Of a stretch of 32,695 bases of DNA, positions 4,306 to 19,343 are shown in pieces. The translations under genes and the position numbers were made by a program. This DNA is from Patescibacteria group bacterium (GTDB lineage Bacteria; Patescibacteriota; Microgenomatia; Levybacterales; UBA12049). The notes under the pieces were generated by a model. It did no database searches. It saw nothing but the letters and a program-made list of their open reading frames with translations, and had not been told where the DNA came from. Every line of letters starts with the position of its first letter. The stretch's first letter is position 1. Where the stretch lies: positions 1 through 32,695 of the forward strand of contig JAMCZC010000019.1 in assembly GCA_023485865.1 (NCBI GenBank). Direction: 5' to 3'.

Positions 4306-5100
4306 TTAATTAAATTCCAGAAATAAAGGCAGATGGTCGGAAACCTCGTCCTGCAAAACCTTAAAACCTAAGACTTTTATGTCTTTTGAAACCAAGATAT
4401 AGTCTGCAAATTTATCCTTTCTGGTATGCAGATTACTTCTTGTGCTTTTTACTTTATACTTTTTAACTAAATTAACCATATTTTTTTCCAAGATCAGCAT
4501 ACTCTTTGTATCCGGGTTTAGGTTAAAATCCCCGCAAAGAATTTTTCTATGTTTATATGAACGCAGGAATTTTATTATTCTATCCGATTGTTCGAATCTT
4601 TCCGGTGTATCTTCCTTTGATTCGGATATCCAAAATCCATGCAGATTAGCTATCAAAGTTTTTTTTACTTGTCTTGAGCCCGCCGAAGGATTCTCTATGT
4701 CAACAAAATGAATATTCCTTGGAAAGTCCATAAAATTACCATCTCTTACGGGTTTTGTGCGCTCCTGGCCATATGAGCCATAAACAAAAATATCTCCCTC
4801 AGATAAAATCTTTATTGAATTCTTAACAAAAGTGGCCTGTCCAAAAAGAAGTTCGAAATCAACCTTTTCTTTGGTATCGTGTCCTGCAAACATGGGGGCA
4901 AAATAACCGTTATAATCTTTTAAGATCTTGGCAATGTCGGAATAAACATTCGTCTTTATACGATTATGAAAAATATTTCTGTCGGATTTGAATACTTCCT
5001 GAAAACAAAATACATCAACGATTTTACTCTGTTTTTTTAAAAAATTTATCAACGGTTCGTAAACCTGCCCTCCCCAAATATTTAACGCAATTAATTTCAT
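4306..5100 (-). CDS. Endonuclease/exonuclease/phosphatase (EEP) family protein
   Basis: LIALNIWGG, CFQEV, LCGDFNLNPD and SDHLPLFLEF motifs. Confidence 0.85.
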   Translation of the reverse strand: MKLIALNIWGGQVYEPLINFLKKQSKIVDVFCFQEVFKSDRNIFHNRIKTNVYSDIAKILKDYNGYFAPMFAGHDTKEKVDFELLFGQATFVKNSIKILSEGDIFVYGSYGQERTKPVRDGNFMDFPRNIHFVDIENPSAGSRQVKKTLIANLHGFWISESKEDTPERFEQSDRIIKFLRSYKHRKILCGDFNLNPDTKSMLILEKNMVNLVKKYKVKSTRSNLHTRKDKFADYILVSKDIKVLGFKVLQDEVSDHLPLFLEFN

Positions 5101-5145
5101 TTAAACATTATATCACGGGAAAAATTAAAACTAAATAAAAAAATA

Positions 5146-5226
5146 GATTACTGCAGGTATACTAGTATACTTACAATAAAAAGACTATGTAGTGATGTAT
5201 CAATACAGTAAGACATATCTAATTAA
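5146..5226 (+). repeat. 81-bp direct repeat, copy A (two hairpin-forming segments)
   Basis: About 86% identity (11 mismatches by eye over 81 nt) to 6606-6686, including an identical 32-nt core TATGTAGTGATGTATCAATACAGTAAGACATA. Confidence 0.9.
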
Positions 5227-5263
5227 TAAATGTCCGGGGAAAAATTCCACGGTAAAACTATCG

Positions 5264-5518
5264 TTACGCGGTAATCGCGGTTAAATCCGCAAGTTCAGAT
5301 TTGTATTCATACGGTAAGCTATTCCAAATAATTGTGTGCGCCAGAACCGCCCCTTCTTTTTCCCGTTCGGCTAGAGAATCATAAGAAAGCTGTCTTTCCA
5401 GAATAAGCAAGCATGACAGGGCGCTTCTGATTTGACCGTCAGACGAAACTCTGCAATAATCTCTTTTGCTTGGAACCTCTCCGATAATCTCGATTTGTAC
5501 CGGTTGTTTTTCCGCCAT
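5264..5518 (-). CDS. Hypothetical protein, 84 aa
   Basis: ORF with TATAAT-ACCGTA-ATG immediately upstream. No family recognised. Confidence 0.6.
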   Translation of the reverse strand: MAEKQPVQIEIIGEVPSKRDYCRVSSDGQIRSALSCLLILERQLSYDSLAEREKEGAVLAHTIIWNSLPYEYKSELADLTAITA

Positions 5519-5590
5519 TACGGTATTATATTATTTATTATAGGATATTTCAAATGATGATAGGGATTAGCGGGAGAAATTGGGAGATGT

Positions 5591-5887
5591 TTATTGAATT
5601 GGGATTCCCTCGTCTGTCCTCCAGTTGGGGTTAGGACCTTTAGGTTCCCATGGAGCTTTCCATGCGGAGCTGGAAAAAAAGAAGCTTACCCTTTGTGCAT
5701 CTGCTTGTTTTTTTGTGAGATTTATAAAAACTCCGCCTTCTTCCCTTTCTATCGCTTTTTCTGCTTCACGGATTGTTTGTTCATCGGTTCCAAATATAGT
5801 GTATAGAGTTTCGACACTGTCTCCTACTCTCCTGGACATCTCTGGTATAAAAATCGCTGCTTCTGTTTTGTTTTCTTGATGTGACAT
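5591..5887 (-). CDS. Hypothetical protein, 98 aa, Trp/Pro-rich C terminus
   Basis: ORF with TATAAT-TGCCGA-ATG immediately upstream. No family recognised. Confidence 0.6.
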   Translation of the reverse strand: MSHQENKTEAAIFIPEMSRRVGDSVETLYTIFGTDEQTIREAEKAIEREEGGVFINLTKKQADAQRVSFFFSSSAWKAPWEPKGPNPNWRTDEGIPIQ

Positions 5888-5992
5888 TCGGCAATTATAT
5901 CACCGGAAGCGAGATAATCAAATTCGTGGGGAAAATTGGTTTTGCTAATCATAAATTTAGGTATATAATAAAATTAAAGGAGGTGATTTGAA

Positions 5993-6175
5993 ATGCCAAG
6001 AGAAACAGGAGAAATTCCGACTGTTCCGCCGCCCAACGAGGTTTCTAGAAAAACTCCCAAGCCTGGAGATACGCAGGCAATTTCTAACCCAGATTTATTA
6101 GATAGGCTACAATCAGAAGCGGCTAGGACACGTGGAGCAAAACAAGCCGGACAAATCGGCAATTCTCATACTTAA
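5993..6175 (+). CDS. Small hypothetical protein (60 aa), Pro/Arg/Thr-rich, probably disordered
   Basis: Strong Shine-Dalgarno AAAGGAGGTGATTTGAAATG, plus TTTGCT-17-TATAAT upstream. Confidence 0.6.
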   Translation: MPRETGEIPTVPPPNEVSRKTPKPGDTQAISNPDLLDRLQSEAARTRGAKQAGQIGNSHT

Positions 6176-6220
6176 ACCTTGAGCAGATTATACTGCGGGA
6201 AAATTTGCGGGGGAAAAAAT

Positions 6221-6565
6221 TTATATTTTCATTTTATCTTTTATTTTTTCAAGTCCTGCGTTAGTCATTTTCCCTTCTTTTATTAATTTTTTTATTCTTT
6301 GTTTATTGCTCTCCTGTAAATTGCTTTTTTGTTTTCTTGGGGTAAATCTGCCTGTAAATCTTTCTTTGTCAATCCCCTTTTCTATGCTATCTATCCAGTC
6401 AAAGCAAAGAGCCTCTTCAACCGCGTCGTTATAAGAAATTGTTGGTTTTCCTGTTGTTTTCTTGTAATAGATAAGCCAAATTTCTTTTTCTTTATCGAAG
6501 TTTTTGGAAAGCCAATCCCTCCACTCTTTTCTATTTTTTATATAAAGAGTTTTCCCAATATTCAT
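6221..6565 (-). CDS. YdeI/OmpD-associated-like family protein, short form
   Basis: LYIKNRKEWRDWLSKN...EIWLIYYKK...YNDAVEEALCFDWIDS...RFTPRKQKSNLQESNKQRIKKLIKEGKM matches the family pattern. TATAAT-TGGTTT-ATG upstream. Confidence 0.8.
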   Translation of the reverse strand: MNIGKTLYIKNRKEWRDWLSKNFDKEKEIWLIYYKKTTGKPTISYNDAVEEALCFDWIDSIEKGIDKERFTGRFTPRKQKSNLQESNKQRIKKLIKEGKMTNAGLEKIKDKMKI

Positions 6566-6605
6566 AAACCAATTATACCACGGGAAATCTGAAGCTAAAA
6601 AAAAT

Positions 6606-6686
6606 GATTATCACAGGTATACAAGTATACTTGTGATAAAAAGATTATGTAGTGATGTATCAATACAGTAAGACATAATCAATTAA
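6606..6686 (+). repeat. 81-bp direct repeat, copy B (more complete hairpins)
   Basis: See copy A. Contains TATCACAGGTATAC-AA-GTATACTTGTGATA and GATTATGT...ACATAATC. Confidence 0.9.
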
Positions 6687-6696
6687 GTTGCGAGGC

Positions 6697-6713
6697 TCAA
6701 CCCCGGGGGTTGA
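6697..6713. other. Perfect palindrome TCAACCCC-G-GGGGTTGA in a divergent intergenic region
   Basis: 8-bp stem, 1-nt centre, between the YdeI-like gene (-) and rpmE (+). Confidence 0.8.
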
Positions 6714-6810
6714 CGCTGGAGAAATTCGAAGATTGAGCGGGAAATTTGCGCCCTCTGAAACTCTCAAAAAAGCCTTGTATTGAGTTCGTGTTTGCGGTAT
6801 AATATTCCCT

Positions 6811-18240: not shown

Positions 18241-19343
18241 TTCCCGATTTTAAACTCTATTACGTCTCCATCTCTTACAATATAATCCCGGCCTTCAAGC
18301 CTGTCTTTTCCGTGTTCCCTGCTCCCTTTCCAGCCGTTGTATTGAACAAAATCTGGAAAGCTGACAACTTCCGCTTTAATAAATTTTTTCATAAAATCGG
18401 TATGGATTTCGCCGCTGGCCAAAAGCGCATTTGCACCCTTTTTGATAGTCCATGCCCTGACCTCTTTCTCTCCCGCCGTAAGAAATGAAATTAAACCAAG
18501 CTCCTCGTAGGCTTTTTTGATAAGTCTTTCCAAGCCCGATGTTTCAAAACCCAGATCTTTTAGGTACTGTTTTTGTTCATCTTCCGATAAAACCGCTAAA
18601 TCAGCCTCTATTTTGGCACAAATTACAACTATTTTCTCTTTCTTAATTCCTAATATATTAGTATACTTGTATACTAGTGGTTCTATATTATCTTTTAAGT
18701 ACTGGTCTTCCGAAACATTTAAGACAACAATTTCTTGTTTTGCGGTTAAGAAATTAAGCTCTTTTATTGCTTCCTTCTCCTGTTCATCAAGCACCATGTC
18801 TGAAATCGAAATTCCCTGATTTAGTTTTTGCTCAATCAAATCCAAGAAATTTTGATTTTTGAGTTGCATTTTTGCCTTTTGAGTTTTGAGTTTTGAGTTT
18901 TGGATAGTTTGCAAATCGGCAATTTGCAACTCTGTCCTGATTGTATCGTAGTCGCTTTTTGGGTCAACCGCCCCTTCTTTCAAGATATTTTCATCCTCAA
19001 ACGCCCTGACAACGTGGGCAATAACACTAACTTCGCGAATGTGCGACAAAAATTTATTACCCAATCCCGCACCCTCGCTTGCACCCTTAACAAGCCCCGC
19101 AATATCAACAAAATTGACAACCGCCGGCTTTATGGGCGGTTTCAATCCGCGCGAATCCGATTCCTGAACAATCTGCGCTAATCTTTCCAATCTTTCGTCC
19201 GGAACAGGAACTATCCCGACATTCGGCTCAATAGTGGCAAAGGGATAATTAGCAACAAACGCCTGCTGCTTCTTCAACAGCGCATTAAAAAGAGTAGATT
19301 TGCCAACATTCGGAAGTCCTATAATACCAATCGAGAGCGACAT
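18237..19343 (-). CDS. ychF: Redox-regulated ATPase YchF (OBG-family GTPase)
   Basis: GLPNVGKSTLFNALL, FVDIAGLVKGASEGAGLGNKFLSHIREV, C-terminal TGS-like HTDFMKKFIKAEVVSFPDF. Confidence 0.95.
   Translation of the reverse strand: MSLSIGIIGLPNVGKSTLFNALLKKQQAFVANYPFATIEPNVGIVPVPDERLERLAQIVQESDSRGLKPPIKPAVVNFVDIAGLVKGASEGAGLGNKFLSHIREVSVIAHVVRAFEDENILKEGAVDPKSDYDTIRTELQIADLQTIQNSKLKTQKAKMQLKNQNFLDLIEQKLNQGISISDMVLDEQEKEAIKELNFLTAKQEIVVLNVSEDQYLKDNIEPLVYKYTNILGIKKEKIVVICAKIEADLAVLSEDEQKQYLKDLGFETSGLERLIKKAYEELGLISFLTAGEKEVRAWTIKKGANALLASGEIHTDFMKKFIKAEVVSFPDFVQYNGWKGSREHGKDRLEGRDYIVRDGDVIEFKIGN

What the first reader, a model, noticed from the sequence alone, without database searches (positions are those of the whole stretch)
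5146..6686. Two 81-bp direct repeats with covarying hairpins and an invariant 32-nt core bound a block of small orphan genes
Seen directly: 5146-5226 and 6606-6686 align without gaps with 11 mismatches; TATGTAGTGATGTATCAATACAGTAAGACATA is identical. Hairpin 1 is centred on GTATAC-NN-GTATAC. Between copies, two stem positions change in a compensatory way (G-C to A-T, T-A to C-G), and two A-copy mismatches are paired in copy B, so structure appears conserved rather than primary sequence. The core forms a second hairpin, (GAT)TATGT-AGTGA-TGTA-TCAA-TACA-GTAAG-ACATA(ATC), with a symmetric purine-rich internal loop. On the minus strand each hairpin is followed by a T-run. Inference: a structured RNA, a recombinase/transposase end (IS200/IS605-type hairpins are one analogy) or a cassette boundary. 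The 1.38 kb between the copies holds four small genes, three without a recognised family.
Basis: partly seen in the sequence, partly recalled or inferred. Interest (0 to 1): 0.68.

Follow-up and report, generated by a model that had tools for sequence, protein, structure and literature searches.

The report
Paired operator-like palindromes upstream of promoters
Two copies of an 81-base DNA module, each made of two tandem palindromes of kinds that in related ultra-small bacteria bracket genes for TrpR-family DNA-binding proteins, sit just upstream of two promoters and probably act as protein-binding control sites rather than as an RNA or a transposon end.

Summary
In detail: 81 bp, 11 mismatches, identical 32-nt core, and only two full copies in this 680-kb genome. 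It is not a one-off, because each half belongs to a palindrome family found in related Ca. Levybacteria. Hairpin 1 (CAGGTATACNNGTATACYTG) recurs in 9 of 100 relatives and co-occurs with one subclass of TrpR-superfamily protein (p ~2e-6), usually close to that gene. Hairpin 2 fits exactly TGT-N5-TGTAT-YR-ATACA-N5-ACA. That site brackets a YerC/TrpR-like gene at fixed distances in 6 of 6 Levybacteria, with an upstream copy in a Doudnabacteria genome. The same two-palindrome arrangement, plus a third shared palindrome, occurs once in another genus (G014). Both window copies lie at near-equal distance upstream of extended -10 promoters, for an EEP nuclease and a YdeI-like gene. The most likely reading is a composite operator module. 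Main caveat: no cognate regulator of either subclass was found in the 94%-complete assembly. The 1.38-kb block shows no sign of being a mobile cassette. The TrpR-bracketing pattern is the more interesting by-product.

The parts
5146..5226 (.). Repeat copy A: composite of two tandem palindromic sites
6606..6686 (.). Repeat copy B: composite of two tandem palindromic sites
5154..5173 (.). GTATAC-type (class ii) palindrome in copy A, CAGGTATACTAGTATACTTA
   Evidence: same motif in relatives
6614..6633 (.). GTATAC-type (class ii) palindrome in copy B, CAGGTATACAAGTATACTTG
5188..5215 (.). Class-i (YerC-type) site in copy A: TGT-AGTGA-TGTAT-CA-ATACA-GTAAG-ACA
   Evidence: 0 mismatches to the grammar
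6648..6675 (.). Class-i (YerC-type) site in copy B, identical to copy A
6691..6716 (.). Third palindrome CGAGGCTCAACCCCGGGGGTTGACGC next to copy B, shared with the G014 element (L187)
5107..5112 (-). -10 box of an extended -10 promoter (CGTGATATAAT) for 4306-5100; class-ii centre 51.5 bp and class-i centre 89.5 bp upstream of its first T
6572..6577 (-). -10 box of an extended -10 promoter (CGTGGTATAAT) for 6221-6565; class-ii centre 46.5 bp and class-i centre 84.5 bp upstream of its first T
4306..5100 (-). Endonuclease/exonuclease/phosphatase (EEP) family gene downstream of copy A
   Evidence: PF03372 E=6e-12
6221..6565 (-). Small gene downstream of copy B, YdeI/OmdA-like by eye
   Evidence: no Pfam or NCBIfam match over cut-off; YdeI-like from general knowledge only
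5264..5518 (-). 84-aa ORF between the copies, no family
5591..5887 (-). 98-aa ORF between the copies, no family; TrpR-likeness tested and not supported
5993..6175 (+). 60-aa ORF between the copies, no family
18661..18674 (.). Third GTATACNNGTATAC site of the window, inside ychF coding sequence, with no indel relative to orthologues

Best explanation
Each 81-bp repeat is a composite DNA operator module. It holds two palindromic protein-binding sites of TrpR-superfamily type, 38 bp apart centre to centre, placed upstream of a minus-strand extended -10 promoter (class-ii centre about 47-52 bp and class-i centre about 85-90 bp upstream of the first T of the -10 box). Dimeric TrpR/YerC-like helix-turn-helix proteins would bind the two palindromes and set the activity of the two promoters (EEP nuclease gene; YdeI-like gene). 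The repeat would then be a shared control module that was copied or moved next to a second promoter, with the binding cores kept and the outer stems drifting in a partly compensated way. Shown: the repeats, the two palindrome grammars, their association with TrpR-like genes in relatives, the promoter context, and a second occurrence of the composite in another genus. Inferred: binding, the sign of regulation, and which protein binds in this genome.
For: (1) Hairpin 2 fits TGT-N5-TGTAT-YR-ATACA-N5-ACA exactly in both copies. The same grammar, exact or with a few mismatches, brackets a YerC/TrpR-like gene in 6/6 Levybacteria loci (first site starts 37-66 bp before the start codon, second 5-17 bp after the end of the match), with a clean upstream site in a Doudnabacteria locus. 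Asymmetric 5-bp modules (AGTGA with TTCCA or ATCCA) recur, so the window's AGTGA/CTTAC asymmetry is typical. (2) Class-i palindrome against class-i protein over 80 genomes: p=3e-6. (3) Hairpin 1 is the GTATAC palindrome. Over 100 genomes, palindrome and class-ii TrpR-like protein coincide in 6 of 9 palindrome-bearing genomes against 2 of 91 others, p=2e-6, and the palindrome flanks such genes (G049:C3, G043:917 kb, G044, G022, G014). (4) The composite occurs in G000 twice and in G014 once among 374 genomes, same order and orientation, upstream of a minus-strand ORF and followed by a shared third palindrome. (5) Both copies lie upstream of the promoter form CGTGNTATAAT. (6) TrpR and HisR/YerC repressors bind about 20-bp palindromes with lineage-specific sequence, often autoregulating (PMC9413887).
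Against: The assembly (94% complete) encodes only one TrpR-superfamily gene, of another subclass, with a different palindrome upstream. G014 also lacks the class-i protein. Some GTATAC sites lie in convergent intergenic regions or inside coding sequence, where a promoter operator is not expected. Spacing between the two palindromes differs in G014 (25 bp by reading, against 38 bp). No binding or expression data exist.
Confidence: 0.58

Rival explanations
1. REP/BIME-like mosaic: the palindromes are short dispersed elements that spread in these genomes and accumulate next to one another; the TrpR-like genes bracketed by them resemble REP-transposase units, and the window copies carry no control function.
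For: Y1 (RAYT-like) transposase genes in the same genomes are in part bracketed by their own palindromes with similar geometry. The own RAYT palindrome CACCTTAGAGGTGG has six copies and abuts a GTATAC palindrome in G000:C27; the same pair is seen in G014:C45. GTATAC sites cluster (6 of 11 within 18 kb in G043) and can lie in convergent gaps. Mosaics of different palindromes occur (L009, L008, L012; by eye).
Against: The window palindromes are low copy (2 and 4 in the genome) and not the palindrome of the resident RAYT. Sites in ychF and mvaD show no inserted length (for ychF; mvaD by eye). Class-i sites keep their position at YerC-like genes across genera and a second lineage.
Confidence: 0.22
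2. Structured RNA or intrinsic terminator read from the minus strand: two hairpins, each followed by T-runs.
For: Compensatory changes and G-U-compatible changes on the minus strand; T7-T8 run after hairpin 1; folds -14 and -20 kcal/mol on the minus strand. Copy A lies just downstream of the 84-aa minus-strand ORF.
Against: No Rfam match. Copy B has no minus-strand gene upstream, because rpmE is divergent. No T-run in the G014 element. The most conserved parts are the binding-type cores, and the outer stems drift. The same palindromes occur upstream of promoters and bracketing genes in relatives.
Confidence: 0.1
3. Neutral local duplication: one regulatory region was copied 1.46 kb away and both copies are drifting.
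For: Only two copies in the genome; the core invariance alone is weak (P=0.03).
Against: The composite recurs in another genus; both cores match families conserved in relatives; both copies sit at near-equal distance from unrelated genes' promoters.
Confidence: 0.1

Closest known systems
TrpR / HisR (YerC) operators of the TrpR superfamily (PF01371, TIGR02531; PMC9413887)
   Same: Palindromic sites with lineage-specific half-sites, upstream of promoters and of the regulator's own gene; the cognate proteins in relatives match PF01371 and TIGR02531.
   Different: Sequence and length differ (28-bp grammar with 5-bp modules, or GTATAC palindromes); sites flank the gene on both sides; two subclasses' sites are fused in tandem; no cognate regulator found in this genome; the class-i gene lies with thyA, folA and nudix genes, not his or trp genes.
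REP elements / BIMEs with RAYT (TnpA_REP) transposases (PMC2817692, PMC8266576)
   Same: Short extragenic palindromes, bracketing of a gene for a DNA-binding protein, mosaics of different palindromes.
   Different: Very low copy; bracketed protein is TrpR-like with no Y1 domain; the resident RAYT has a different palindrome.
IS200/IS605 subterminal hairpins
   Same: Imperfect hairpins as direct repeats.
   Different: No transposase or accessory gene between the copies.

Membership tests
TrpR-superfamily operator | Palindromic site of about 20-28 bp matching the sites of a TrpR-superfamily subclass | tested here: met
TrpR-superfamily operator | Located upstream of promoters | tested here: met
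TrpR-superfamily operator | Cognate regulator encoded in the same genome | tested here: not met
   only a class-iii TrpR-like gene found, with a different palindrome; assembly 94% complete
TrpR-superfamily operator | Binding and regulation shown | not testable with these tools
   needs DNA-binding and reporter assays
REP/BIME | Many copies per genome | tested here: not met
   two copies of the unit, four GTATAC sites
REP/BIME | Same palindrome flanks a resident Y1 transposase (RAYT) | tested here: not met
   the own RAYT is flanked by CACCTTAGAGGTGG
IS200/IS605 ends | Y1 transposase between the ends | tested here: not met
   ORFs between the copies have no family match
Integron attC cassette boundary | GTTRRRY / RYYYAAC core sites | tested here: not met
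   neither copy contains GTT or AAC (read)
Intrinsic terminator | Hairpin plus T-run downstream of a gene on the same strand, in every copy | tested here: not met
   copy A only; copy B has no minus-strand gene upstream, and G014 has no T-run
Known structured RNA | Match to an Rfam family | tested here: not met
   no match in the window

The most novel reading that the evidence does not exclude
In Ca. Levybacteria and relatives, small TrpR-superfamily proteins of several subclasses form self-contained units: each gene is bracketed by a matched pair of subclass-specific palindromes whose further copies are scattered and combined into mosaics. This would be a REP-like, perhaps selfish or genome-organising system that uses a TrpR-type binder in place of a transposase, and the window repeats would be such a mosaic.
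Probability: 0.15. Interest if true: 0.75.

Novelty: new variant of a known kind. Interest (0 to 1): 0.5.

Why it matters
Transcription control in ultra-small CPR bacteria is almost unstudied. The comparison ties a set of palindromes to specific TrpR-superfamily subclasses by position and co-occurrence, which gives testable protein-site pairs in organisms that cannot be cultured easily, and it suggests a regulon around thymidylate, folate and nucleotide-pool genes. It also shows that hairpins which look like RNA or transposon ends in raw sequence can be explained as DNA-binding sites.

Tried and rejected
Exact core searches in GTDB genomes and IMG/VR found nothing. A structured RNA found no Rfam match. 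The 98-aa ORF between the copies gave a weak tblastn hit to YerC (E=0.21), but profile comparison (5.5% probability) and a low-confidence model (pLDDT 56) do not support it. The ychF site was tested as an insertion; the alignment shows no extra length. A viral origin of the class-ii proteins was tested: none in IMG/VR. The site grammar hits 14 viral contigs among 2.9 million; these were not followed and may be chance. The class-ii alignment was too diverse for a GTDB scan. The G000 motif GGGGAAAATTTGG was looked at and set aside as a separate small family. Promoter-proximal versus convergent placement of GTATAC sites did not separate operator from REP-like readings.

Full report
Observation. 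The two 81-bp repeats are as described: gapless, 11 mismatches, a 32-nt identical core and two hairpins each. The own genome (680 kb, 41 contigs, 94% complete) has no further full copy. The run of 32 matches is only mildly unusual given 11 mismatches (P=0.03), so the interest lies in what the two halves are.

Hairpin 2. A DNA search of 188 relatives showed the 20-mer TGTAGTGATGTATCAATACA at several loci, mostly as a full palindrome next to a 128-144-aa gene matching Trp_repressor (PF01371) and YerC/YecD (TIGR02531). The gene sits among thymidylate synthase, dihydrofolate reductase and nudix genes (product names by eye from the translations). Six of six Levybacteria loci have one site starting 37-66 bp before the start codon and one starting 5-17 bp after the end of the match; a Doudnabacteria locus has a clean upstream site and by eye a weaker downstream one. 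The sites follow the grammar TGT-N5-TGTAT-YR-ATACA-N5-ACA, some with a few mismatches, with recurring 5-bp modules (AGTGA, TTCCA, ATCCA) that may differ between the two arms. Both window copies fit this exactly, with AGTGA and CTTAC (0.00 expected). Class-i palindrome and class-i protein coincide over 80 genomes (p=3e-6).

Hairpin 1. Its centre, CAGGTATACNNGTATACYTG, belongs to a palindrome pattern found in 9 of 100 relatives, at up to about 11 places in one genome, with zero control matches. These palindromes flank a second subclass of about 143-aa TrpR-like protein: on both sides in G049:C3, G043 and G044:C30, and on at least one side in G044:C56, G022 and G014. An unbiased search for that protein over the same 100 genomes gives 6 of 9 palindrome-bearing genomes against 2 of 91 others (p=2e-6). 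Matching palindromes around TrpR-like genes are general in this group: 25 of 57 genes have an upstream palindrome scoring 9 or more against 1.8% of shuffles, 17 of 57 downstream against 1.7%. The short canonical TrpR subclass mostly lacks them.

The composite. Scanning 374 genomes of the class for the two palindromes in tandem found the two window copies and one more, in G014, with the same order and orientation. The G014 element lies just upstream of a minus-strand ORF and is followed by CGAGGCTCAACCCCNGGGGTYGAYGC, which also follows window copy B. Centre spacing differs (38 bp in the window, 25 bp in G014). In the window both copies are upstream of minus-strand extended -10 promoters of the form CGTGNTATAAT; class-ii centres lie 51.5 and 46.5 bp upstream of the first T of the -10 box, class-i centres 89.5 and 84.5 bp. 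The downstream genes are an EEP-family nuclease and a YdeI-like gene. Transcripts would be nearly leaderless (inference).

What is missing. The genome's only TrpR-superfamily gene (C11:13190) belongs to a third subclass with its own upstream palindrome. A tblastn search of the stitched assembly with class-i and class-ii proteins, ThyA and FolA from a relative found none.

Rivals. Several RAYT-like transposase genes in the same genomes are bracketed by their own palindromes, and mosaics of palindromes exist (G000:C27, G014:C45, L008, L009, L012), so a REP-like reading stays open at about 0.2. In its favour are clustering and sites in convergent gaps or coding sequence. Against it are the very low copy number, the different palindrome of the resident RAYT, the lack of inserted length in ychF, and the fixed position of class-i sites across lineages. 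The RNA and terminator readings lack support: no Rfam match, no minus-strand gene ahead of copy B, no T-run in G014.

Verdict. Real feature, most likely a duplicated composite operator module of TrpR-superfamily type. It works like TrpR/HisR operators. Membership is not claimed in full, because the cognate regulator was not found here and binding is untested. The wider pattern, TrpR-like genes bracketed by subclass-specific palindromes in Ca. Levybacteria, was not found described in the papers searched, but that library is partial.

Noticed in passing
G000:C11:13068-13450 (L053): The genome's only TrpR-superfamily gene has a 32-bp perfect palindrome CTTACTACTGTGCTATGTAGCACAGTAGTAAG just upstream and a half-site after its stop; it lies among membrane and glycosyltransferase genes.
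   Followed up: partly
L010, L011, L015, L020, L299: Class-i palindromes and a YerC-like gene sit with thymidylate synthase, DHFR, nudix, deoxyribosyltransferase-like and (Doudnabacteria) RdgB-like genes; a further site in G060 precedes a uracil-DNA-glycosylase-like gene: a possible nucleotide-pool regulon.
   Followed up: partly
G000:C2:15059-15858, C3:5624, C5:11295, C26:3723, C27:669: A low-copy REP family (CACCTTAGAGGTGG, six copies) with its own RAYT-like transposase; one copy abuts a GTATAC palindrome.
   Followed up: partly
L227 (G022:C10): A RAYT unit with its flanking palindromes appears inserted near the 3' end of a class-ii TrpR-like gene; the end of the TrpR reading frame is repeated beyond it.
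   Followed up: no
L018 (G065) and L075 (G022): A reverse-transcriptase gene carries a class-i palindrome in one genome and a GTATAC palindrome in another at the same position in its coding sequence, without length change (by eye).
   Followed up: no
L146:12395 (G049): A 26-bp perfect palindrome TGACCAGTATACATGTATACTGGTCA lies in frame inside a diphosphomevalonate decarboxylase-like gene.
   Followed up: no
G000:C27:562, 725, 2162; C33:24447, 25322; L187:1420 and 1590: A small interspersed motif GGGGAAAATTTGGTTTTGAAGCCCC, partly just upstream of promoters, shared with G014.
   Followed up: no
G000:C36:1111-1449: Three palindromes within 340 bp, two sharing CGTTATAACAATGTTATAACG.
   Followed up: no
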